From assembly GCA_012103035.1 (NCBI GenBank), contig JAAVLL010000002.1:62001-126000 (forward strand): a DNA stretch of 64,000 nucleotides, given 5' to 3'. A model generated the notes under the pieces. The model saw nothing but the letters and a program-made list of their open reading frames with translations, did no database searches and was not told the origin of the DNA. The DNA comes from Brucella oryzae (GTDB lineage: Bacteria; Pseudomonadota; Alphaproteobacteria; Rhizobiales; Rhizobiaceae). The position numbers and the translations under genes are program-made. This document shows, piece after piece, positions 53,168-63,751 of this stretch (within the stretch, counting starts at the first letter, position 1; each line of letters starts with the position of its first letter).

Positions 53168-54136
53168 TCAATCTCCGTAAATACGTTTTTCCAGGGGTGG
53201 AGGCAATCAGCCCCTTCAATCCGGCCAGCATGGCCTTTTCGGCCTTGTTGAGATTGGTTTCCGGATTCTGGATCAGGAAAACATCGATTGCGGAGGGTTA
53301 TCGTAAGGTGGCAAACGCCAGAGGAGGCCGTCATCGATCTCGCGTCGCGCCACATGCAATGGAAGCGGGCCGATGCCAAGCCCGGTGATAATCATCCGGC
53401 GCACTTCTTCAAGGCTCGATGACGTGCCGACCACATCCGGTGAAAGCCGCGCTTCACTGCGCAACAGGGCTACGGGTCGCAGTGCGTCGGCAATATGGTC
53501 CGTCTGGAACGAAACCGACGGCTCCCCTTTCAGATCGGCAAGCGTCAAGCCTGACTGCCCGAACATCCGGTGCCGGGGTCCGCAGAAAAAGCCGAAGAAC
53601 TCACGATAGACCATGGTGTAATCCAGCGCGGGATCGCGATTGCTCACCAAGCCAAGGCCGAAAGAGGCGCGCTTCTCGCGCACCAGCCGGGCGACTTCGG
53701 TGCTGGCGGATACGTTGATCGTCAGTGTCGCGCGGGGATGCTGTTCGTGAAAGAGTGCAAGCGCCTGATCGAAGATGGGCGAGATAATGTGGCTGGCGAC
53801 CGATATGGTGACATGGCCGGTCACATCATCTCCCACCCCGCGCACCAGCTGCGGCAATTGCGAAATGGCGCCGAAGACCTCGATGCTCTGTTCATAGAGG
53901 AGTTTGCCAACTTCCGTCAGCTCAAAATGGGTGGCGTCACGCTCCACCAGCCGCTGGCCGATGCGGTCTTCCAGCCTGCGCAGCGCATTGCTCACGCTCG
54001 GCTGTTTGAGGTTGAGGCGCTCCGCGGCGCGGGTGATGCTTTTGACTTCGGCGATCACCACGAAACTGCGCAGAAGGTTCCAGTCCAGATCCCAGACAAG
54101 GCGTTCGGGGCGGTGCAGCGACATGGTTTTATCCAT
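53168..54136 (-). CDS. LysR-family regulator, divergent from the catabolic operon; frameshifted
   Basis: A LysR regulator. The N-terminal part WDLDWNLLRSFVVIAEVKSI is followed by the helix-turn-helix RAAERLNLKQPSVSNALRRL and LVERDATHFELTEVGKLLYE. The effector domain includes HVTISVASHIISPIFDQALA and ILDP-like parts. A lost base near 53283 and possibly one near 53185 affect the C-terminus, so the stop at 53168 is inferred. It is divergent from the polar amino-acid importer at 54260 and most likely controls that operon, with its own substrate or product as inducer. Confidence 0.85.
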
Positions 54137-54259
54137 TCATGAGATCTATGTAATCCATTCCCATTATCTATTTGCGAAATGCATCCATAAAAGCAATCAT
54201 GAATATTGGAAGGCATAAACAAGCCTCAGAAAAACAATTAAGAGGAAGTCGGGAACAGC

Positions 54260-55044
54260 ATGTTTAACAAATTCACGGGTTTCATTGCCGCTGCAGCGAT
54301 TGCCGCCACCGCAGTCTTTGCGGTTGCGCCCGCACAGGCGGATGATCTGGAAAAGATCAAGGCATCGGGCGAGTTGAAAATCGCCATGAGCGGCCAGTAC
54401 CCGCCGTTCAATTTCGTCAATGAGAAGAACGAGGTCGTGGGCTTCGACGCTTCCATCGGTTCGGCCATTGCCGAACGTATGCAGTTGAAGCCGCAGCTCA
54501 TCACTACGGCCTGGGATGGTATCGTTGCCGGTCTTCGGGCGGGCAAGTTCGACACGGTGGTCGGCTCCATGACCATCACGCCGGAACGCGAGAAGGCCGT
54601 GGACTTTGTCGGACCGTATTATCACGCGGGCCGCGCGGTTTTCGTGAAGGAAGACTCTGCCGTTCAGAAGCTTGACGACCTCAAGGGCAAGACGCTGGGC
54701 GTCACGCTTGGTGAAACCCATGAGAAGTGGGCGCGCGAACAGGGTGGTTGGACCATTCGCACCTATAAGGGCCTGCCGGAACTGATGCTCGAACTGAATT
54801 CGGGTCGTGTCGACGCCATCGTCGTCGATAACATCCCGGTCATGGTGGCAATCAAGGAAACCGGGCAGAAGGTCCGCAGGCTCGATACGCCGGACATTGA
54901 AGGCGGCAGCGTTGCCATCGGCATTGCCATCCGCAAGAACAATCCGAGCTGAAGGCTGCGATGCAGAAGGCGCTCGACGAGATCATGGCCGACGGCACCT
55001 ATGAGAAGATCTCGATGGAATGGGTCGGCAGCGACATTCGCTGA
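54260..55044 (+). CDS. Polar amino-acid ABC transporter substrate-binding protein, frameshifted near end
   Basis: A periplasmic binding protein of the HisJ/ArtJ class. Signal peptide MFNKFTGFIAAAAIAATAVF, cleaved after AQA. The mature part starts LEKIKASGELKIAMSGQYPP and has FNFVNEKNEVVGFDASIGSA and VVGSMTITPEREKAVDFVGP, all family marks. The bilobed fold's ligand loop (ETHEKWAREQGGWTIRTY) is present. A lost G near 54948 shifts the last 32 residues. Length about 261. It is first in the catabolic operon, which suggests that the substrate has an amino-acid-like head. Confidence 0.9.
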
Positions 55045-55056
55045 TATGTCGTCATC

Positions 55057-55081
55057 CCGGCCCGGCATATGTCCGGGCCGG
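55057..55081 (+). promoter_or_regulatory. Intercistronic hairpin after the binding-protein gene
   Basis: A nine-base stem CCGGCCCGG with CCGGGCCGG around CATATGT, with no T run. As in the sugar operon at 28988, it lies between the binding-protein gene and the next transporter gene, consistent with mRNA stabilisation or partial termination. Confidence 0.65.
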
Positions 55082-55109
55082 TTGAGAACCGATTGACCGG
55101 AGTTTCCCG

Positions 55110-55755
55110 ATGGATTTTGCGTTGATGCAGCGCGTCCTCCCGTTTTTCTGGAGGCGGCATGGGTAACTGTGCAAATTTCCGCTATGGCCCTGATCCTGGG
55201 GCTTGCAGTAGCAGCACTCCTTGTGGCCGCGCGCCTGTCGCGATCAGTCATTCTGCGGGGATTTGCAATCGCCTATGTCAGCGTCTTTCGCGGCACGCCC
55301 TGCCTTGTACAGCTCTTCATTCTCTATTTTGGCGGTCCGCAGATCGGCATCAATCTGGAACCGTTTACCGCTGGCGTCATCGGGCTGGGGCTGAACATCG
55401 GCGCCTATATGTCGGAATCGATCCGCGGCGCGATCCAGAGTGTGGACCGCGGGCAAAGCGAAGCGGCGCGCTCCATCGGCTTCGGGCGCGGCCAGACCAT
55501 GCGGTTCGTCGTGCTGCCGCAGGCCGCCCGGCTGATGATCCGTCCGCTCGGCGTCAATGCGATTGCGCTTTTGAAAGGCTCTGCGCTGGTCTCCACCATT
55601 TCAGTGGTTGAACTGACCTATACGGCGCAGCGTTTCATCGGCTCGACCTACAAGCCGTTCGAGATTTCGGCGTCGCCGCCGTTCTCTACATGGTTATCAT
55701 CTATGTCGTGGCGCGCGGGGTCGATCTTCTCGACAAGCGCTTCGCGGCGCAGTGA
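55110..55755 (+). CDS. Polar amino-acid ABC permease 1, frameshifted
   Basis: An inner-membrane permease of the HisMQ family. After a start MDFALMQRVLP and a lost base near 55140 it continues WVTVQISAMALILGLAVAAL. The characteristic FRGTPCLVQLFILYFGGPQI and the EAA loop SEAARSIGFGRGQTMRFVVL follow. A second break lies near 55670 before YMVIIYVVARGVDLLDKRFA. Restored length about 215. It overlaps the next permease gene by four bases. Confidence 0.9.
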
Positions 55756-56426
55756 GGGAGGACCGGATGCAAGCTCTCGATTTCAGCATCGTCGCTCCCT
55801 ATACGGATCTGCTTCTGACGGGCCTTTGGTGGACGCTGGTTCTGACCGTTTCGTCGGCGTCCTTAAGCTTCGTGCTCGGGATCGCATTTGCGCTGGTGGT
55901 GCTTTATGCGCCCGCCATCCTCGCCTGGCCGGTACGGTTCTTCATGTGGCTGTTCATGGGAACGCCGCTTCTGCTGCAACTGTTCCTGATCTATTTCGGG
56001 CTGGTACAGATCGGCATCAATATTCCGGCTCTTGGCGCGGGCATTATCGGCCTCAGCCTGCACTTCGCGGTCTATAATGCCGATATCATCCGGGCAGGTA
56101 TCGTGGCGGTCGATCCCGGCCAGATGGAAGGCGCCCGTTCCATCGGTTTCAGCCATGGTCAGGCCTTGCGCTACATCGTCATCCCGCAGGCGATCCGCAA
56201 CACGATCCCGCCGATCGGCAACAATATGATTGTTCTTCTGAAGGATACGTCGCTGGTTTCGATCATCGGCATTGCGGAACTGGTGCACAGCGCCCAGCTC
56301 GCCATCAGCGAAACCTTCAGCCCGTTCGAATTCTATATCACCGTCGCGGCCATCTATTATGTGGTCAATCTCGTGCTCGAGGCAGGCCTGCGGCGCATTG
56401 AAAGAAAAGTGGAGGTCACGCGATGA
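55752..56426 (+). CDS. Polar amino-acid ABC permease 2
   Basis: An intact permease of the same family as the preceding one, about 219-224 residues depending on GTG 55752 or ATG 55767. It has [20 protein letters not shown], the EAA loop [20 protein letters not shown] and [20 protein letters not shown]. Two different permeases are the normal heterodimer of HisQM-type importers. Its stop overlaps the ATPase start. Confidence 0.93.
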
Positions 56427-57195
56427 GCAGCTCCCAATCTGCAAAACCGATGGTCGAAGTGAAGGATGCCCGCAAGGCTTACGGCGCGCTGGAAGTGCTG
56501 AAAGGCATAGACCTTTCCGTGGCGCGCGGCCAGATCGTCGCGATCATTGGCCCGAGCGGCTCCGGCAAAAGCACATTGTTGCGCTCGATCAATCATCTGG
56601 AAACGCTGAATGGCGGTGAGGTCTGGCTTGATGGCGTGCAGGTCAACCAGCCGCTGACCGGGCAGGCGTTTGAAAAGCACATCAATGCGGTGCGCCAGCA
56701 GATGGGCATGGTGTTCCAGCACTTCAACCTGTTTCCGCATCTGACGGTGCTGGAAAACATCACGCTCGGCCCGATCAAGCTCAAAGGCATGGGCAAGGAC
56801 GCGGCACGCACGCTGGCGCTGGAACTTCTGTCGAAGGTGGGACTTGCCGACAAGATCGACGTCTACCCTTCGCGCCTGTCGGGCGGCCAGAAGCAGCGCG
56901 TGGCCATTGCGCGTGCGCTTGCCATGCAGCCGAAGGTGATGCTGTTCGACGAGGCGACTTCGGCGCTCGATCCCGAGCTGGTGGACGAGGTCAATGCCGT
57001 TATGAAGCAGCTTGCCGCTGAACATATGACGATGCTGATCGTCACGCACGAAATGCGTTTTGCGGGCGAGGTCGCCGACCGCATCCTGTTCATGGATGGC
57101 GGCGTGGTGGTGGAAGAGGACCGCCGGATCAGATTCTCAGCAATCCGGTACAGGAGCGCACCCGCTCCTTCCTCAAGAAATATCTGGCTGCGTGA
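56423..57195 (+). CDS. Polar amino-acid ABC ATPase (GlnQ/HisP-like), frameshifted at end
   Basis: The ATPase of the importer. Walker [11 protein letters not shown]-loop [18 protein letters not shown], signature [19 protein letters not shown], Walker [16 protein letters not shown] and H-loop [20 protein letters not shown] lost G near 57119 (GAGGACC for GAGGGACC) shifts the last 25 residues; restored, it ends in [16 protein letters not shown] with a stop at 57195. Length about 257. It is ten bases upstream of the dimethylformamidase-like gene. Confidence 0.93.
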
Positions 57196-57204
57196 GGTGT
57201 CGGA

Positions 57205-58842
57205 ATGAGCGAGAGAAACATTAACGAGTTTCCCGATTTCGGGCTGACGCCGGCGCAGCGGCGTGAAGCCGTCCTTGGCCATTATTACGAATATCCCGGC
57301 ATGGATGGTCCGCGCGGCGAAATCTGGTGCTATACAGATGCCTATTCCTATCTTCCGGGCGCGACTGTCAATCTTCAGGTGAGCGCGACCGCCTCGCGTT
57401 TCGATATCGAGATCGTACGGGATGGAGCGGTGGAAACGCCGGTCTTCTCCAAGCGCGGGATCGACTGCAAATGGCAGGAAACACCGGCGCAATGTTCGGT
57501 TGTCGGCTGCGGCTGGGAAACGACATTTGCCTTCAAGACGGATGAGAACTGGCCTTCCGGCGCTTATCGCATCACCTTGAAGGCGCATGGCAATGACGGA
57601 CAGCCGATCCATTGCCATCACCTGTTCATCCTGCGCCCGGCGGCGGGCGCAAGCCCGGACGTATCCTGCAGGTCGCCGCGACCGGCACATGGACCGCCTA
57701 TAATACCTGGGGTGGTTCCAACCATTATCAGGGCATTACCGGGCCGAATGGCGATCAATATGCGACGACGGTGAGTATCGAGCGTCCTTTCTGCCGTGGC
57801 TTTGTTGTCCTGCCATCCGACGCGCCGCGCGTACCGCTGGAATTTGTGACGCCGCCAGCCAGCCCCCACGCTACCCGCATATGGAATGGGCCTATGCCAA
57901 TGGCTATTCCAAGAAATATACCTCTTCCGGCTGGGCAAGCTATGACAGCCTGTTCTTCCGCTGGGCCGAGCGGGAAGGCTTTGCGGTCGATCTCGCCAGC
58001 CAGCACGAATTGCATTTCTCGCCGGAAATCCTCGACGGTTACGATTGTGTCGCCTTTGTCGGTCACGACGAATACTGGACATGGGAAATGCGCGATGCCG
58101 TCGATCATTATGTTGACGGCGGCGGTCGTGCGGCGCGTTTCGCGGGCAATTTCATGTGGCAGACCCGGCTTGAGGACAACGGCAAGCGCCAGACCTGCTA
58201 CAAATATCGCGCCCGCGCCGAAGACCCGGTCTATCGCTCCGCCGATCCGCGCCGCACCAGCGGCTGCTGGGAAGCGAAAGAAACCGGACGGCCCGCAGCG
58301 GAGACATTCGGGCTCAACGCACTGCGCGGGCTATATGTCGGCTGGGGCGGCTGCGCTCGCGCGGCGTGCGTGGTTTCCCGGTCTATCGTCCAGAACACTG
58401 GGCCTTTGCTGGTACCGGCATCTATTACGGCGATCTTCTCGGTGCCGACGGTCATGCCTTCGGCTACGAAGTCGACGGGCTTGATTATGTGATCCGGGGT
58501 GGATTGCCGGAACCGGAGGAAGGCAGCGGTGCACCGGATGGATTGCAGATATTGGCGCTTGGTATGTCGTCTCTCAAGGAAGAGAGCGCAGATATTCCAG
58601 CCGACGACCAGTTTCTCTCCGATGCCGATGCCAAATTCGTTGCCGATACGCTGATCGGCGACAATGGTGATGCAGCCGTCGAACGCATCAAGCGCGGCTG
58701 TGGCATGATCGTCAATTTCCCGCGCGGCAAGGGCGAGGTTTTCCACGCCGGAAGCTGCGAGTGGGTAGCGGCTCTCAAACGCGGCGACCGCATGGTCGAG
58801 CGTGTAACCGCCAATGTTCTCAACCAATATCTCAAGCGCTGA
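57205..58842 (+). CDS. N,N-dimethylformamidase beta-subunit-like hydrolase, frameshifted
   Basis: This protein resembles the large subunit of N,N-dimethylformamidase, an iron-dependent amidohydrolase. Visible parts are the beta-rich N-terminal domain ([20 protein letters not shown]), the core ([60 protein letters not shown]) and a C-terminal metal-ligand-like CEW ([20 protein letters not shown]). Three lost bases (near 57640, 57865 and 58360) break it. Restored length is about 546, shorter than dimethylformamidase large subunits, and no small-subunit gene is near. I infer that it hydrolyses an amide bond in the imported compound. The family match is by eye; substrate unknown. Confidence 0.72.
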
Positions 58843-58854
58843 CAGAGTAACGCC

Positions 58855-60220
58855 ATGCTCAACACAAAAGCACAGAACGAACGCCCCGCATCGCATCTTT
58901 TCTACCAGTCGCGCCTGCGCAGGCCGCTGGTGGATCGTGCCGAAGGCATCTACATCTGGGATCAGGACGGACGCCGCGTCATCGACGGATCGAGCGGCGC
59001 GATGGTGGTCAATATCGGCCATGGCAATCGCAACGTGCTCGATGCCATGAAGGCGCAGATGGACCGCGTGACCTTCGCCTATCGCCTGCATTTCGAAAAC
59101 GAACCGGCTGAAGATCTGGCGCGCATGGCCGCCGAGCGGATGCCGGAAGGTCTGACAAGATATTCTTTGTTTCCGGCGGTTCGGAAGCGGTGGAATCTTG
59201 CATCAAGCTTGCCCGCCAATGGGCGGTTGCGACCGGGCAGGGCAAACGCTGGAAAGTGATTTCGCGCTTTCCATCCTATCATGGCGGCACGCTTGGCGCG
59301 CTCGCCGTCACCGGCTATGCGGCCTTGAGCGAACCTTTCGCGCCCATCATGCGTGAAATGCCGAAAGTCCCGGCGCCGACCGCCTATCTTGACCGCGACA
59401 ATCTTTCGATGGAACAGCGCGGGCAGAAATATGCCGACATGCTGGAAGAACGGATTCAGGAGGAAGGTCCTGAAAGCGTGCTCGCCTTCATCATGGAGCC
59501 GATCGGCGGGGCGTCCACCGGCGCGCTGGTTGCGCCCGACAGCTATTATCCGCGCATCCGCGAAATCTGCGACCGTTATGGCATCCTGCTGATCCATGAC
59601 GAGGTGATGAGCGGCGCTGGGCGTACTGGCAAGTTTCTCGGCGGCGATCACTGGAACTGCAAGCCTGATCTCATCGCGCTTTCCAAGGGCTTTGCCTCCG
59701 GCTATTGCCCGCTGGGCGCGATGGCCGCACCGGCCCGCATCGTCCAGCCGGTTCTGGATGCCGGGGCTTCCTGCATGGCTTCACCTATGCCGGCAACCCG
59801 CTGGCCTGCGCGGCGGGCAAGGCCGTGTTGCAGGAAATCGACCGTCTTGATCTGGTCGGCAATGCCGCCCACATGGGCGATGCGCTGAAGGGCGAACTGG
59901 AAGGGCTTGCGAAGCGCTTCCCGTTCATCGGCGATGTGCGCGGCAAGGGGTTGTTGCTGGCTGCTGAGTTCGTCTCCGATCCCGAAACCATGAAGCCGCT
60001 GCCAAAGGAACTGAACGCCCATCAGCGCATGGTCGATCTCGCCTATGAACGCGGGCTTATCATCTATTCGCGTCGCACGCGCGGCGGTGTCGAGGGCGAC
60101 CATTTCCTCGTCTGCCCGCCAGTGATTGTGAGCCGCGAACAGGTCGGCGAGATTACGGCCATCCTTGGCGACACGCTGGAGGTTCTGGCGCGTGAACTCA
60201 AACTGCCCGTGAATGCGTAA
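58855..60220 (+). CDS. Class III aminotransferase, frameshifted
   Basis: A PLP-dependent aminotransferase of fold type I, class III. Conserved parts are YIWDQDGRRVIDGSSGAMVV, NIGHGNRNVLDAMKAQMDRV, YHGGTLGALAVTGY and LLIHDEVMSGAGRTGKFL. The PLP-Lys lies in LIALSKGFASGYCPLGAMAA. A lost A near 59158 and a lost base near 59768 break it; restored length about 455. Class III enzymes act on omega-amino acids, beta-amino acids or polyamines. In this operon it could turn an amine into the beta-keto acid used by the next enzyme. ATG 58855 starts after GAGTAACG. Confidence 0.9.
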
Positions 60221-60232
60221 GGAAACCGGATC

Positions 60233-61180
60233 ATGACCGACAAGAAGAAGACGCGTCGCAAGGTGATTATCACCTGCGCGGTGACGGGCTCCGTCCATAC
60301 GCCCTCCATGTCGCCGCATCTGCCGGTCACGCCGGACGAGATTGCGAGCGAAGCCATTGCCGCAGCAGAAGCGGGCGCATCCATCCTGCATCTTCACGCC
60401 CGCGACCCGCGCGACGGCAGGCCGTCCGCCAATCCGGACCTGTTCATGCAGTTCCTACCGCGCATCAAGCAGTCGACCACGGCAGTGGTGAATATTTCCA
60501 CCGGCGGCTCGTCATTGATGACGCTGGAAGACCGTCTGGCCGCGCCGCTCAAGGCGGAGCCGGAAATGTGCTCGCTCAATATGGGCTCGATGAATTTCGC
60601 GCTGTTTCCCGCACTCGACAAGCCGCGTGAATGGAAACATGCATGGGAGCCGGAACTGCTGGAGGCTACCCGCCATTCGATTTTCAAGAACACTTTCGCG
60701 GATATGGAAGGCATTCTGACCAGCCTCGGGCAGGGCTGCGGCACGCGCTTCGAGTTTGAATGCTACGATGTCGGCCATCTCTATTCGCTGGCGCATTTCC
60801 GCGACCGGGGGCTGGTGTCCGGTCATTTGTTCATCCAGTTCGTCTTCGGTGTTCTGGGCGGTATCGGAGCCGATCCGGACAATCTCATGCATATGAAACG
60901 GATTGCCGACAAGTTGTTCGGTGACGACTATTCCTTCTCCGTACTGGCGGCGGGACGGCACCAGATTCCGATGATTACCATGGCGGCTGCCATGGGCGGC
61001 AATGTCCGCGTCGGGCTGGAAGACAGCCTTTATGACGGGCGCGGCCAGCTTGCCAAGAGCAATGCCGATCAGGTGCGGCGCATTCGCAGTATCCTTGATG
61101 GCCTGTCGCTGGAGGTGGCAACGCCCGACGAAGCGCGCGACTATCTGGGTCTCAAGGGTGGAGACAGGGTGGCGTTTTGA
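60233..61180 (+). CDS. Beta-keto acid cleavage enzyme (BKACE, DUF849)
   Basis: An intact 315-residue zinc TIM-barrel enzyme of the BKACE family. Members exchange acetyl-CoA with a beta-keto acid to give acetoacetate and a new CoA ester. The metal-binding HLHARDP (H53 and H55) follows the first strand (VIITCAVTGSVHTPSMSPHL). Other marks are FECYDVGHLYSLAHFRDRG and GGNVRVGLEDSLYDGRGQLA, where Glu of GLED is the expected third zinc ligand. Its ATGA overlap with the next gene shows coupling. The true keto-acid is unknown. Confidence 0.92.
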   Translation: MTDKKKTRRKVIITCAVTGSVHTPSMSPHLPVTPDEIASEAIAAAEAGASILHLHARDPRDGRPSANPDLFMQFLPRIKQSTTAVVNISTGGSSLMTLEDRLAAPLKAEPEMCSLNMGSMNFALFPALDKPREWKHAWEPELLEATRHSIFKNTFADMEGILTSLGQGCGTRFEFECYDVGHLYSLAHFRDRGLVSGHLFIQFVFGVLGGIGADPDNLMHMKRIADKLFGDDYSFSVLAAGRHQIPMITMAAAMGGNVRVGLEDSLYDGRGQLAKSNADQVRRIRSILDGLSLEVATPDEARDYLGLKGGDRVAF

Positions 61181-61725
61181 TGCCGAAAATCGTGCTGGAT
61201 AACAAAACAGGCGTTACGGTCCGGCTTGGCGAAGCCGCCGACGCGGAACTGATCCATGAGGCAATCCGCATCATGGGCGAAGGGCTTGGTGCTGCCGACA
61301 GGATTTCCAGCACGGTCGAGGATTTTCGCCGTTACGGTTTCGGTCCCTATGCGGCATTCACCAGCCTGATTGCCGAGGTGGACGAGAGCTTTGCCGGGCT
61401 CGCCCTGTTTTTCCCGATCTTCTCGACATGGTTCGGCAAACCCGGCGTCTACGTGCAGGACCTCTATGTCGATGAAGCCTTTCGCGGCAACGGGATCGGT
61501 GAAGTGCTTCTGCGCCATGTCGCCTCCTGGTCGATGGCGCGGGGCGGCGTCTATCTGCGGCTGGCCGTGGACCGGGACAATGTTGCTGCACAGAGATTTT
61601 ACGAGCGGCTGGGTATCGGCTGGATCGAAGCCGACCGCGATCACGGAGCCTATGGCGATGATTTCGCCCGTCTGGCGCATATCAATAAAACAGGGAGCAG
61701 TCATGAAAGCCTTTTACGCCGTTGA
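61180..61725 (+). CDS. GNAT acetyltransferase, spermidine/diamine N-acetyltransferase-like
   Basis: An intact 181-residue GNAT protein. It has FSTWFGKPGVYVQDLYVDEA followed by the acetyl-CoA loop R102-GNGIG (FRGNGIGEVLLRHV) and a C-terminal part with RDNVAAQRFYERLG. The STW-x-GK phrase and the DLYV-x-x-x-xRG-x-GIG order are those of the spermidine/spermine and thialysine acetyltransferases. It would acetylate a primary amine. The start ATG 61180 overlaps the BKACE stop, and its end overlaps the deacetylase gene by 23 bases. Confidence 0.82.
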   Translation: MPKIVLDNKTGVTVRLGEAADAELIHEAIRIMGEGLGAADRISSTVEDFRRYGFGPYAAFTSLIAEVDESFAGLALFFPIFSTWFGKPGVYVQDLYVDEAFRGNGIGEVLLRHVASWSMARGGVYLRLAVDRDNVAAQRFYERLGIGWIEADRDHGAYGDDFARLAHINKTGSSHESLLRR

Positions 61726-62728
61726 GCAGAAGCGTCACGACCCAAAAGCCTTTCTTTCCAGCGGCGCGCCGCAACCGAATCCCGAACAGCCGGAGCGTGT
61801 CGAGCGCCTGCTCGCCGGTGCGAAGGCTGCAGGATGCGAGATTATCCGTCCGCAAAATCATGGTCTGGGCCCGATTGCAGCCGTGCATACGCCGGAATAT
61901 CTGGAATTCCTTCAATATATCTATGCCCGCTGGCGGCTCGAGGAGGCGCCGGAAGAGGTGATCCCGAACATCCATCCGCTGGCGCGTGATGGCCGTTATC
62001 CAGCGTCAGCCGTGGGGCAGGTCGGCTATCACATGGCTGACACGGCTTGCCCGATTGCCGAACATACATGGGAAAGCGTGTGCTGGAGCGCGTGGAGCGC
62101 GGTCGATGCCGCCGATGCGGTGCTTGCGGGCGAGGTCGCGGCCTATGCGCTCTGCCGTCCGCCGGGGCATCATGCCTTTGCCGATGTGGCAGGCGGCTTC
62201 TGCTTCGTCAACAATTCGGCTGTCGCAGCAGAGCGCCTGCGCTCGAAAGTCGGGCGTGTGGCGATCCTCGACGTCGATCTGCATCACGGCAATGGAACGC
62301 AGGGCATTTTCTACGCCCGCCCCGACGTGCTGACCGTCTCGATCCATGCTGATCCGGTGCGCTTCTATCCATTTTTCTGGGGCCATGCCGACGAGCGCGG
62401 CGAAGGCGCGGGGCTTGGCTACAATCTCAACCTGCCGCTGCCGCGCAAATCCGGCGACGCCGAATTCCTTGCGTCACTCGCCACGGCATTGCGCCGCATC
62501 GAAGCCTTCGCGCCGGATGCGATTGTGGTCGCACTCGGCCTCGACCCGTTTGAGGGCGACCCGTTCGGCGGATTGTCGGTCACCACCGGTGGTTTCGGAT
62601 GCATTGCCGAAGCAATCGCAAAACTGCGTCTGCCGACCGTCATCGTGCAGGAAGGCGGCTATCTGTGCGATGCGCTCGGCGATAATCTCACGGCCTTCCT
62701 CGGCGGCTATCGGTCGGTGGCGCGATGA
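61703..62728 (+). CDS. Histone-deacetylase-family acetylpolyamine amidohydrolase-like enzyme
   Basis: An intact 341-residue zinc amidohydrolase. The catalytic His pair is H156-H157 (CRPPGHHAFADVAGGFCFVN), zinc ligands D192 and H194 (ILDVDLHHGNGTQ) and D281 (LGLDPFEGDPFGG), and the catalytic Tyr is Y320 (VQEGGYL). The size, the spacing of these residues and the entrance region PEQPERVERLLAGAKAAG match bacterial acetylpolyamine amidohydrolases. It would remove acyl groups from an amine. It is paired with the diamine-acetyltransferase-like gene it overlaps, suggesting linked acylation and deacylation of one compound. Confidence 0.9.
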   Translation: MKAFYAVEQKRHDPKAFLSSGAPQPNPEQPERVERLLAGAKAAGCEIIRPQNHGLGPIAAVHTPEYLEFLQYIYARWRLEEAPEEVIPNIHPLARDGRYPASAVGQVGYHMADTACPIAEHTWESVCWSAWSAVDAADAVLAGEVAAYALCRPPGHHAFADVAGGFCFVNNSAVAAERLRSKVGRVAILDVDLHHGNGTQGIFYARPDVLTVSIHADPVRFYPFFWGHADERGEGAGLGYNLNLPLPRKSGDAEFLASLATALRRIEAFAPDAIVVALGLDPFEGDPFGGLSVTTGGFGCIAEAIAKLRLPTVIVQEGGYLCDALGDNLTAFLGGYRSVAR

Positions 62729-63144
62729 ACGGTCTTGTCACCTTTGTCGGCGTCGCGCATCCGTGGATGTGCGATGTCATGGGACATATGAATGTCCGCC
62801 ATTATGCTGCGATGTTCGATGATGCGAGCTTTCAGCTCCTGGGTCACATTGCCGGGAAAATTCCCGACGACGGTTTTGGTTGGGCGGATGTGCGTTCGAC
62901 AACCGAATACAAGCAGGAAGTGCCAGCCGGGGATCTGCTGACGATCCGTGCGCATGTGCTGAAAATCGGGCGCTCGTCGATCACATTTCGCCAGATGATG
63001 GTGGGATCGCTCGATGGCGAACTGCGCGCGGTTAACGAGACGACTACGGTTTGTTTCGATAAGGTTGCGCGGCGCTCAGCCGAACTCGAACCGGACATGC
63101 GCGTCCGGGCAGAAAAGCTGCTTGCGGATCATCCCGTCGGCTGA
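62725..63144 (+). CDS. Hotdog-fold acyl-CoA thioesterase (4HBT type)
   Basis: An intact 139-residue hotdog thioesterase. The 4-hydroxybenzoyl-CoA-thioesterase-like motif D17-x2-GH-x-N is seen in CDVMGHMNVRHYAAMFDDAS. The rest has FTTEYKQEV-like strands (RSTTEYKQEVPAGDLLTIRA) and SITFRQMMVGSLDGELRAVN. It would hydrolyse the CoA ester released by the BKACE enzyme. Its ATG overlaps the deacetylase stop by four bases. It closes the operon; no hairpin terminator is obvious after it. A betainyl-CoA thioesterase of carnitine breakdown is a known analogue of this BKACE-thioesterase pair. Confidence 0.88.
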   Translation: MNGLVTFVGVAHPWMCDVMGHMNVRHYAAMFDDASFQLLGHIAGKIPDDGFGWADVRSTTEYKQEVPAGDLLTIRAHVLKIGRSSITFRQMMVGSLDGELRAVNETTTVCFDKVARRSAELEPDMRVRAEKLLADHPVG

Positions 63145-63751
63145 CACGAAAAATGCAGCACGCTTTTGTGCAATCGCATTCAAGGTCGCGCAACAGGCCG
63201 TCCCTGAGGCCGTAAATCCAGCCGTGCACGACGATATCCTTGTTCTGTTTCCAGGCCGATTGCAAAACCGGCGTGCGCGACAGGCTTTCCACCTGCGATG
63301 CGACGGTCAGTTCGCAAAGCCGGTTCAGACGTTCTTCGGGATCGGTAAAATTGTCCAGCTCCTGCTCGTTTGCCTGTGCAATATCGCGAACCGGCTGGAG
63401 CCAGTTGTCGATGATGCCGTGCCCATAACCGGCCATGGCAGCACGCACACCGCCGCATCCATAATGGCCGCAGACGATGATGTGTTTGATCTCCAGCACC
63501 TCGACGGCAAATTCAAGCACCGACAGAAGGTTGAGGTCGGCGCGATGGACGAGGTTGGCGACGTTGCGGTGTACGAACACCTCGCCGGGCTGCAATCCGG
63601 TGACGACATTGGCCGGAACGCGGCTGTCCGAACATCCGATCCAGAGATATTCCGGGCGTTGCATCGATGACAGCCGACTGAAATATTCAGGGTCTTCCTG
63701 CCGCTTTTCCGCCGCCCATTGCCGGTTATGCTCGAAAAGGTCTGATATCAT
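63044..63751 (-). CDS. Beta-class carbonic anhydrase
   Basis: A zinc enzyme that interconverts CO2 and bicarbonate. Zinc ligands C40 (IGCSDSRVP, with the D42-R44 dyad), H96 and C99 (VCGHYGCGGVRAAM) are present. The rest is typical (FVHRNVANLVHRADLNLLSV). As read it overlaps the convergent thioesterase gene by 100 bases with an unusual Arg/Pro-rich tail after GLLRDLECDCTKACC. A lost base in the A run near 63170 would give a stop at 63129, so the last 28 or so residues are doubtful. The normal protein is about 206-214 residues. Confidence 0.9.
   Translation of the reverse strand: MISDLFEHNRQWAAEKRQEDPEYFSRLSSMQRPEYLWIGCSDSRVPANVVTGLQPGEVFVHRNVANLVHRADLNLLSVLEFAVEVLEIKHIIVCGHYGCGGVRAAMAGYGHGIIDNWLQPVRDIAQANEQELDNFTDPEERLNRLCELTVASQVESLSRTPVLQSAWKQNKDIVVHGWIYGLRDGLLRDLECDCTKACCIFRVSRRDDPQAAFLPGRACPVRVRLSAAQPYRNKP

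What the first reader, a model, noticed from the sequence alone, without database searches (positions are those of the whole stretch)
54260..63144. Unassigned catabolic operon: amino-acid importer, amidase-like, aminotransferase, BKACE, acetyltransferase, deacetylase, thioesterase
Ten plus-strand genes overlap or lie within about 65 bases, with a divergent LysR gene in front. Seen directly: an HisJ-class importer, a dimethylformamidase-like protein, a class III aminotransferase, a BKACE (DUF849) enzyme, a diamine-acetyltransferase-like GNAT, an acetylpolyamine-amidohydrolase-like deacetylase and a hotdog thioesterase. Known: BKACE enzymes use acetyl-CoA to split beta-keto acids. Inference: an amide-containing, amine-bearing compound is imported, hydrolysed, transaminated to a beta-keto acid, cleaved to acetoacetate plus a CoA ester, and the ester hydrolysed. 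An N-acetylated beta-amino acid, such as acetyl-beta-lysine, would fit, but no described pathway I know of has this exact gene set.
Basis: partly seen in the sequence, partly recalled or inferred. Interest (0 to 1): 0.85.

Follow-up and report, generated by a model that had tools for sequence, protein, structure and literature searches.

The report
Acetyl-protected beta-amino acid catabolic operon
A conserved but unassigned bacterial gene cluster whose parts fit a pathway that caps the far amine of a beta-amino acid (most likely beta-lysine) with acetyl, removes the near amine, splits the chain with acetyl-CoA and uncaps the remainder, so it may supply missing genes for a pathway known only from old enzyme work.

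Summary
The operon is real, but in this assembly 7 of its 11 genes (LysR included) are broken across reading frames; an intact copy with the same order exists in a same-genus genome. It is conserved. In 49 named loci with a BKACE at least 77% identical and enough flank, 40 carry the amidase-like gene, aminotransferase, GNAT and deacetylase together, and 48 carry the deacetylase. The smaller core aminotransferase-BKACE-GNAT-deacetylase recurs in the same order in three alphaproteobacterial families, beside different importers. The BKACE looks like the neutral-substrate type, the GNAT is nearest to thialysine/ornithine/diamine acetyltransferases, and the deacetylase is of the acetylpolyamine type without its polyamine-binding glutamate. 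This fits acetylation of a terminal amine, transamination to a neutral beta-keto acid, acetyl-CoA-dependent cleavage, thioester hydrolysis and deacetylation. That is the order of the aerobic beta-lysine pathway I recall from Barker's Pseudomonas work, whose enzymes I recall as lacking genes. The substrate is not proven. The dimethylformamidase-like gene is an unexplained, dispensable extra, and the three Ochrobactrum/Brucella genomes searched have no GABA transaminase over the model's cut-off.

The parts
53193..54136 (-). Divergent LysR-type regulator, in two pieces in different frames
   Evidence: PF00126/PF03466; pieces against the intact same-genus copy
54260..55041 (+). HisJ-class amino-acid-binding protein of the importer, in two pieces
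   Evidence: PF00497; nearest NCBIfam models are cystine (151.9 bits) and lysine/arginine/ornithine (150.4 bits) binding proteins, both below cut-off; pieces
55139..55752 (+). Amino-acid ABC permease A, in two pieces (first residues not covered by the match)
   Evidence: PF00528
55703..56426 (+). Amino-acid ABC permease B, in two pieces
   Evidence: PF00528
56423..57208 (+). Amino-acid ABC ATPase; the frame breaks near the C-terminus
   Evidence: PF00005
57205..58842 (+). N,N-dimethylformamidase-like protein (DMFA2_C), in four pieces
   Evidence: PF20254 pieces; PDB 6lvb/6lvd weakly similar to the intact copy; positions aligned with DMFase Y399 and E521 kept in 47 of 47 homologues
58855..60220 (+). 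Class III (omega) aminotransferase, in three pieces
   Evidence: PF00202 pieces; nearest NCBIfam PRK07483, below its cut-off; PLP lysine kept in 58 of 58 homologues
60233..61180 (+). BKACE beta-keto acid cleavage enzyme, intact
   Evidence: PF05853 363.9 bits; NF053538 524.7 bits, cut-off 430
61177..61725 (+). GNAT acetyltransferase resembling thialysine/ornithine/diamine acetyltransferases, intact (the match to the intact copy covers 61180-61701)
   Evidence: PF00583; nearest PDB chains of its intact homologues
61703..62728 (+). Acetylpolyamine-amidohydrolase-type zinc deacetylase, intact (the listed ORF starts further upstream)
   Evidence: PF00850 253 bits; nearest PDB chains of its homologues 3men, 9gkz, 6phr, 3q9b
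62725..63144 (+). Hotdog (4HBT_2) acyl-CoA thioesterase, intact
   Evidence: PF13279; weakly like positions 352-477 of the PRK07531 carnitine 3-dehydrogenase model, E=1.4e-5

Best explanation
The operon encodes aerobic catabolism of an imported cationic beta-amino acid, most likely beta-lysine (3,6-diaminohexanoate), with acetyl as a protecting group. Proposed steps, all inferred and none assayed: (1) the HisJ-class ABC importer takes up beta-lysine; (2) the GNAT acetylates the terminal amine, giving N6-acetyl-beta-lysine, which stops the keto form from cyclising; (3) the class III aminotransferase makes 6-acetamido-3-oxohexanoate; (4) the BKACE, using acetyl-CoA, makes acetoacetate plus 4-acetamidobutyryl-CoA; (5) the hotdog thioesterase, or the deacetylase itself in strains without it, frees 4-acetamidobutyrate; (6) the APAH-type deacetylase gives 4-aminobutyrate and acetate. 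Acetoacetate is activated by acetoacetyl-CoA synthetase. The LysR gene regulates the set. The dimethylformamidase-like protein is an optional amidase that would widen the intake, for instance by freeing beta-lysine from an amide; this last role is a guess.
For: (a) Linkage: of 49 named loci with BKACE at least 77% identical and adequate flanks, 45 have the aminotransferase, 45 the GNAT, 48 the deacetylase, and 40 all four partners including DMF. In a phylum sample 18 of 398 genomes had a BKACE match at 1e-135; 14 of these 18 have the aminotransferase directly upstream, in 5 families; of the 14, 12 have the deacetylase and 10 the GNAT within the short flanks read. The order aminotransferase-BKACE-GNAT-deacetylase holds in families f1, f8 and f17. 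(b) Minimal form: Shinella sp. HZN7 pShin-01 carries SBP-permease-permease-ATPase-aminotransferase-BKACE-GNAT-deacetylase, then LysR and a thioesterase, with no DMF in the stretch shown. (c) The thioesterase belongs: in two genomes (those of L103, Rhizobium sp. Root483D2, and L099, a Rhizobiales bacterium) a block thioesterase-LysR-HisJ importer, 65-90% identical, lies about 35 and 64 kb from the enzyme block, on contigs of the same length and so probably the same contig. (d) BKACE substrate class: NF053538 over cut-off; the position of Kce's ammonium-binding Glu is Val in 54 of 54 (that Glu's role is recalled); its solved relative BKACE15 (8RIO/8RIP) takes neutral beta-keto acids (PMC11961710 passages); group G1 is 'hydrophobic and non-charged polar' (PMC4922564 passages; placing this protein in G1 is mine). 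A neutral acetamido chain fits, a free amine does not. (e) GNAT nearest to thialysine, diamine-2 and NATA1 ornithine acetyltransferases and a GNAT of unstated function (2fe7), for proteins of two species. (f) Deacetylase nearest to acetylpolyamine amidohydrolases, yet the polyamine-gripping Glu106 of MrApaH (role: PMC11532494 section 16) is Val or Ala in 59 of 59, which suits a non-polyamine substrate. (g) Importers: HisJ-class, or with permeases nearest to PotB/PotC, all below model cut-offs. (h) Acetoacetyl-CoA synthetase over cut-off in 9 of 9 genomes. Lysine 2,3-aminomutase over cut-off in 0 of 16, which points to imported rather than home-made beta-lysine.
Against: No substrate was shown. 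The Barker pathway is recalled, not read. Canonical GabT (TIGR00700) is over cut-off in only 5 of 9 genomes and not in G000, G016, L055 (Ochrobactrum/Brucella) or L107 (Thalassospira), so the end through GABA needs another transaminase there. The binding protein does not name its ligand: the top NCBIfam model is cystine, just ahead of lysine/arginine/ornithine, and the top PDB chain is a glutamine transporter's. The PotA-like ATPases score highest with a 2-aminoethylphosphonate model. Four genomes keep DMF-BKACE-deacetylase but have no orthologue of this aminotransferase and three of them lack the GNAT in the locus; they hold another aminotransferase at 38-40%, shown for one of them to be over the PRK07483 cut-off. 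The thioesterase has no match at 1e-15 in 12 of 17 genomes chosen for lacking a local copy. Thalassospira lacks a GNAT of this type and adds a DAO-type oxidase, an ArgE/DapE deacylase and a RidA-type protein, which could mean a different substrate. A Phyllobacterium cluster has an RbsB-like binding protein (a relative in L130). NF053538 is named for 3,5-dioxohexanoate. The GNAT hit none of NCBIfam's models by a beta-lysine name at E 0.01. Ten of 19 loci with a less similar BKACE (<77%) and adequate flanks have none of the four partners.
Confidence: 0.55

Rival explanations
1. Same acetyl-protected logic, but the substrate is another beta-amino acid with a terminal amine (for example 3,5-diaminopentanoate, or a carboxylated polyamine), or the already acetylated solute N-epsilon-acetyl-beta-lysine taken up from outside, with the GNAT only re-acetylating.
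For: BKACE enzymes are promiscuous (PMC4922564 passages). Clusters without a GNAT keep the deacetylase. Thalassospira and the f8/f17 families have importers nearest to polyamine ones. The GNAT relatives are named for ornithine and diamines as well as thialysine (PDB names).
Against: The GNAT is in 45 of 49 of the close loci, which is hard to explain if the substrate always arrives acetylated. I know of no described pathway for the alternatives; none was searched for by name.
Confidence: 0.2
2. The GNAT and the deacetylase do not act on the substrate but switch the pathway enzymes by lysine acetylation, in the manner of AcuA/AcuC or Pat/CobB.
For: Cluster-4 enzymes such as PsApaH can also deacetylate peptides and one protein (PMC11532494 section 16). 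A GNAT-deacetylase pair is a known regulatory arrangement (recalled).
Against: The deacetylase is nearest to small-molecule acetylpolyamine hydrolases. The GNAT is nearest to free amino acid and diamine acetyltransferases. The deacetylase persists where the GNAT is missing.
Confidence: 0.1
3. A different pathway led by the dimethylformamidase-like enzyme: an amide, natural or man-made, is hydrolysed to the beta-keto acid or its precursor, and the aminotransferase is only one alternative entry to the same BKACE trunk.
For: DMF is in 46 of 49 close loci. DMF and this aminotransferase can each be missing genome-wide while the trunk stays. In the 39 loci with all five enzymes the aminotransferase distances correlate least with those of the other partners (0.42-0.56 against 0.66-0.82).
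Against: DMF was in none of the loci outside the rhizobial group that I read, nor in the Shinella stretch, though the Kiloniellaceae MAG of L126 has a 53% homologue on another contig. The four DMF-only genomes hold another aminotransferase at 38-40%. DMF resembles the real dimethylformamidase only weakly (E 1.2e-9).
Confidence: 0.15

Closest known systems
Aerobic L-beta-lysine pathway of Pseudomonas (Barker and co-workers, 1979-1981; N6-acetyl-beta-lysine transaminase EC 2.6.1.65, 4-acetamidobutyryl-CoA deacetylase EC 3.5.1.51) - recalled, not read
   Same: The enzyme classes match one to one: acetyltransferase, aminotransferase, acetyl-CoA-dependent beta-keto acid cleavage, deacetylase and thioester hydrolysis, plus an amino-acid importer.
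   Different: No activity tested. Found in Alphaproteobacteria; Pseudomonas was not examined for it. Separate thioesterase in some genomes. An added dimethylformamidase-like protein.
[quoted passage not shown]
   Same: BKACE family, same retro-Claisen chemistry expected; public annotation of this gene borrows its name.
   Different: The Glu of Kce that I recall as binding the substrate amine is Val here (54 of 54), and the NCBIfam Kce model scores 235 bits against a cut-off of 382.
BKACE15 of Paracoccus denitrificans (PDB 8RIO/8RIP) and the deoxyribonate BKACE of Pseudomonas simiae
   Same: BKACE15 is a close solved relative (387 bits) with neutral beta-keto acid substrates (PMC11961710 passages); the P. 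simiae enzyme is proposed to act on 2-deoxy-3-keto-ribonate (PMC6365646 passages); catalytic Tyr173 kept in 80 of 80.
   Different: Their surroundings, as described in the passages read, do not include a GNAT or a deacetylase.
Carnitine degradation (carnitine 3-dehydrogenase, BKACE, betainyl-CoA thioesterase) - recalled
   Same: A BKACE followed by a hotdog thioesterase; this thioesterase weakly matches the C-terminal part of the PRK07531 carnitine 3-dehydrogenase model.
   Different: An aminotransferase stands in place of the 3-dehydrogenase, and an acetyl group would be put on and removed.
Bacterial acetylpolyamine amidohydrolases (cluster 4; MrApaH, PsApaH)
   Same: Closest solved relatives; zinc-site and RPPGHH/EGGY motifs kept.
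   Different: Glu106/His106 replaced by Val or Ala in 59 of 59, and the PIS motif by PFG in 58 of 59.

Membership tests
BKACE (PF05853) beta-keto acid cleavage enzyme | Pfam model over its cut-off and catalytic Tyr (Tyr173 of PdKce) kept | tested here: met
   363.9 bits against 24.8; Tyr in 80 of 80 named homologues
BKACE (PF05853) beta-keto acid cleavage enzyme | Acetyl-CoA-dependent cleavage of a beta-keto acid | not testable with these tools
   No assay
NCBIfam NF053538 3,5-dioxohexanoate:acetyl-CoA acetone transferase | Equivalog model over its cut-off | tested here: met
   524.7 bits, cut-off 430; the Thalassospira and f8 homologues also over. That the name rests on an in vitro panel substrate is my surmise
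Kce, lysine fermentation | Equivalog NF052387 over cut-off and the Glu at the Kce TGAE position | tested here: not met
   235 bits against 382; Val at that position in 54 of 54
Aerobic beta-lysine (Barker) pathway | Genes of all required enzyme classes in one cluster: acetyltransferase, aminotransferase, cleavage enzyme, deacetylase, thioesterase | tested here: met
   Window; Shinella HZN7 plasmid
Aerobic beta-lysine (Barker) pathway | Activity on N6-acetyl-beta-lysine, 6-acetamido-3-oxohexanoate and 4-acetamidobutyryl-CoA | not testable with these tools
   No assay; no paper on it found in the library
Aerobic beta-lysine (Barker) pathway | Onward route from 4-aminobutyrate (GABA transaminase) | tested here: inconclusive
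   TIGR00700 over cut-off in 5 of 9, not in the three Ochrobactrum/Brucella genomes nor in Thalassospira; other class III aminotransferases match in all 9
Cluster-4 acetylpolyamine deacetylase | Nearest relatives, RPPGHH and EGGY motifs, zinc-site residues | tested here: met
Cluster-4 acetylpolyamine deacetylase | Polyamine-recognising acidic residue (MrApaH Glu106 or HDAC10 gatekeeper Glu) | tested here: not met
   Val 55, Ala 4 of 59; PIS replaced by PFG in 58 of 59. PsApaH itself has His106 and bacterial enzymes lack the gatekeeper, so this is a preference marker and not strictly defining
N,N-dimethylformamidase large subunit | DMFA2_C domain | tested here: met
   PF20254 over cut-off in two of the three window pieces tested
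N,N-dimethylformamidase large subunit | 2-Tyr-1-Glu iron site (Y399, Y440, E521; recalled) | tested here: inconclusive
   Y399 and E521 equivalents in 47 of 47; Y440 could not be placed; structure job not finished
Carnitine degradation cluster | Carnitine 3-dehydrogenase beside the BKACE | tested here: not met
   No dehydrogenase in the operon

The most novel reading that the evidence does not exclude
The cluster is the first gene set for aerobic beta-lysine use and assigns genes to EC numbers that I recall as orphans (N6-acetyl-beta-lysine transaminase, 4-acetamidobutyryl-CoA deacetylase). In rhizobia it is extended by an iron-dependent dimethylformamidase-family enzyme that frees beta-lysine from amides, such as beta-lysyl residues of EF-P turnover or of streptothricin-type antibiotics. 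This would make a soil and rhizosphere salvage route for a residue that is otherwise a dead-end metabolite; (R)-beta-lysine is listed as one in E. coli (PMC3781023 passages).
Probability: 0.2. Interest if true: 0.8.

Novelty: new variant of a known kind. Interest (0 to 1): 0.6.

Why it matters
If right, genes can be given to a pathway known, as far as I recall, only from purified enzymes of about 1980. Genes that public records call '3-keto-5-aminohexanoate cleavage protein', 'aspartate aminotransferase family protein', 'histone deacetylase family protein' and 'GNAT family N-acetyltransferase' would gain functions at once across rhizobia, Shinella, Thalassospira and other Alphaproteobacteria. 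It would also show acetyl protection and deprotection used in a catabolic route, and give a small-molecule role to more bacterial histone-deacetylase relatives.

Tried and rejected
Kce/lysine fermentation by annotation name: rejected (model below cut-off, ammonium-binding position changed). Carnitine-type cluster: rejected (no dehydrogenase). Endogenous beta-lysine from lysine 2,3-aminomutase: not supported; none of 16 genomes has a match over the cut-off; 10 of 16 have weaker matches, nine near 290-306 bits, which may be EF-P-type enzymes (the last point is recalled). DMF as a required first step: rejected because it is dispensable. The aminotransferase at 38-40% in DMF-only genomes as a hidden part of the cluster: no other operon protein matched its neighbours, but the one tested is over the cut-off of the model nearest to the operon's own, so replacement stays possible. 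A second aminotransferase plus BKACE-like pair in Shinella granuli (L138) is a separate locus.

Literature: ten searches gave no paper on an aerobic beta-lysine pathway or on this gene set among the rows listed. Searches listed only 20 of 347, 25 of 4,745, 25 of 27 and 15 of 435 papers, and the library holds open-licence papers only, so this is no proof of absence from print. Passages were read from PMC12133276, PMC11532494 (plus section 16 in full), PMC3781023, PMC6365646, PMC11961710, PMC4922564, PMC12871164, PMC3149608 and PMC4784309. The two papers I asked for by DOI, meant as the Kce structure paper and the BKACE survey of 2014 (Nat Chem Biol; DOIs from memory), are not held. Mirror-tree correlations have no species-tree control and carry little weight; in the wider set of 54 loci the aminotransferase correlates about as well as the rest (0.75-0.77 against 0.83).

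Rows dropped before counts: of 80 named loci, 26 with BKACE below 77% are counted apart (19 of them with adequate flanks) and 5 with short flanks were left out of the 49. The 80 are the best kept of 587 and lean to close relatives. My gene finder missed or merged some genes, so the counts rest on tblastn. Genomes were chosen, not random.

Full report
What is there. The nearest named relatives by BKACE are Ochrobactrum sp. CM-21-5, Brucella tritici, B. cytisi and B. grignonensis at 97-98%, so the window is from the Ochrobactrum/Brucella group. In this assembly 7 of 11 genes are in 2-4 pieces in different frames; BKACE, GNAT, deacetylase and thioesterase are whole. Other genes of the genome are split too, and its estimated completeness is 69%. 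I take this as assembly error. A same-genus genome (G016, locus L034) has the whole operon with every frame open and the same order, and its proteins were used as queries. In a family sample G016 and the window's own genome had a BKACE match at 1e-60, while the four other same-genus genomes listed did not, so the operon is accessory in the genus.

Is it conserved? Of the best 80 named loci for this BKACE, 54 have a BKACE at least 77% identical; 49 of these have enough flank. In the 49: amidase-like DMF 46, aminotransferase 45, GNAT 45, deacetylase 48, all four 40. Of 19 less similar loci with adequate flanks, 9 have the aminotransferase, 8 the deacetylase, 1 the GNAT, and 10 none of the four; so the link is with one clade of BKACE and not with the family. 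In an evenly drawn phylum sample 18 of 398 genomes had a match at 1e-135. Fourteen of the 18 have the aminotransferase directly upstream; of these 14, 12 have the deacetylase and 10 the GNAT within the short flanks. The order aminotransferase-BKACE-GNAT-deacetylase is kept in families f1, f8 and f17; in f8 and f17 the proteins are 63-69% (GNAT 35-38%) identical to the G016 ones. The three f8/f17 loci read have a LysR 53-57% identical, no DMF match, and an importer whose permease (tested in L166) and ATPase (tested in L165) are nearest to PotB and to PhnT2/PotA, below cut-offs. Plasmid records: 44 of 72,556 match the BKACE at 1e-120, 40 of them at only 60-80% identity. I read the annotation of two: Shinella HZN7 (core, amino-acid importer, LysR and thioesterase, no DMF in the stretch) and Pararhizobium qamdonense (core with DMF).

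Modules. Two separable blocks are seen: enzymes (DMF, aminotransferase, BKACE, GNAT, deacetylase) and intake (thioesterase, LysR, HisJ importer). In the genomes of L103 (Rhizobium sp. Root483D2) and L099 (a Rhizobiales bacterium) an intake block 65-90% identical lies about 35 and 64 kb from the enzyme block, judged by equal contig lengths. This ties the thioesterase to the pathway. But the thioesterase gave no match at 1e-15 in 12 of 17 genomes chosen for lacking a local copy; a Thalassospira locus has a distant one (27%).

Chemistry from sequence. BKACE: over the cut-off of NF053538 and far below that of Kce. At the place of the Kce glutamate that I recall as the ammonium binder it has Val in 54 of 54 close homologues, and Ile or Val in the 26 others. 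The solved relative BKACE15 acts on neutral beta-keto acids (PMC11961710, passages), and the family's group G1 is described as taking hydrophobic and non-charged polar substrates (PMC4922564, passages). GNAT: nearest solved chains are thialysine, diamine-2, NATA1 ornithine and related acetyltransferases plus 2fe7, a 'probable N-acetyltransferase', for both the G016 and the Ensifer protein. Deacetylase: nearest are acetylpolyamine amidohydrolases; motifs and zinc site kept, Glu106 of MrApaH replaced by Val or Ala in 59 of 59, PIS replaced by PFG in 58 of 59 (roles from PMC11532494 section 16). Thioesterase: weakly matches the C-terminal part of the carnitine 3-dehydrogenase model. DMF: distant from dimethylformamidase, but the positions aligned with Y399 and E521 are kept in 47 of 47; that these are iron ligands is recalled.

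Model. A terminal amine that must be hidden before a neutral-pocket BKACE, and uncovered afterwards, explains why a GNAT and a deacetylase flank the chemistry. Applied to beta-lysine this gives acetyl-beta-lysine, 6-acetamido-3-oxohexanoate, acetoacetate plus 4-acetamidobutyryl-CoA, 4-acetamidobutyrate and GABA. This is the aerobic beta-lysine route that I recall from Barker's group, including a deacetylase with thioesterase activity, which would explain genomes without the hotdog gene. Shown here: gene content, order, conservation, family placement and residue changes. Inferred: every reaction, the substrate and the direction.

Results against. GabT over cut-off in 5 of 9 genomes and in none of the three Ochrobactrum/Brucella ones. 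The binding protein's nearest models are cystine and lysine/arginine/ornithine, both below cut-off, and its nearest solved chain is from a glutamine transporter, so the ligand is not told by sequence. Four of 15 chosen genomes have DMF-BKACE-deacetylase without an orthologue of this aminotransferase; they hold another at 38-40% (one tested is over the PRK07483 cut-off), which Ciceribacter lividus, with the operon's own aminotransferase, lacks at that level. Eight of the same 15 have no DMF match. Thalassospira variants add a DAO-type oxidase, an ArgE/DapE deacylase and a RidA-type protein and lack a GNAT of this type. A Phyllobacterium locus has an RbsB-like binding protein. The role of DMF is unexplained.

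Novelty. No paper with this gene set or with an aerobic beta-lysine pathway was seen in ten searches of the open library (listed, with their caps, under Tried and rejected). The enzyme logic is, as I recall, published; the gene assignment and the DMF-bearing variant seem new. I therefore rate it a new variant of a known kind, interest 0.6: not a new principle, but conserved, generically named in public records and directly testable.

Noticed in passing
window 53193-60217; G000:C2:200130-200983; G000:C1:2440437-2442379: Several genes of this genome are split across reading frames (operon genes, a second BKACE, acetoacetyl-CoA synthetase), which suggests an error-rich assembly rather than gene decay.
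   Followed up: partly
L138:5286-8429 (Shinella granuli): Another pair of a class III aminotransferase (38% identical) and a distant BKACE (29%) beside a divergent SBP-permease pair (32-33% to the operon's), perhaps a related route for a different amino acid.
   Followed up: no
L146:4821-7762 (Mesorhizobium sp. YM1C-6-2): A paralogous BKACE (65%) directly followed by a relative of the thioesterase (59%) and preceded by a 511-aa protein with an ABC-ATPase match: a second BKACE-thioesterase pathway.
   Followed up: no
L107:4401-14920 and L166:2383-12353: Variants with importers nearest to polyamine ones; both carry a DAO-type FAD oxidase downstream of the deacetylase, and Thalassospira adds an ArgE/DapE deacylase and a RidA-type protein.
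   Followed up: partly
L086, L087, L096, L102: Ciceribacter/Rhizobium-type clusters in which the DMF gene stands where the aminotransferase normally does.
   Followed up: partly
window 63044-63751: A beta-type carbonic anhydrase gene (PF00484, minus strand) converges on the end of the operon.
   Followed up: no
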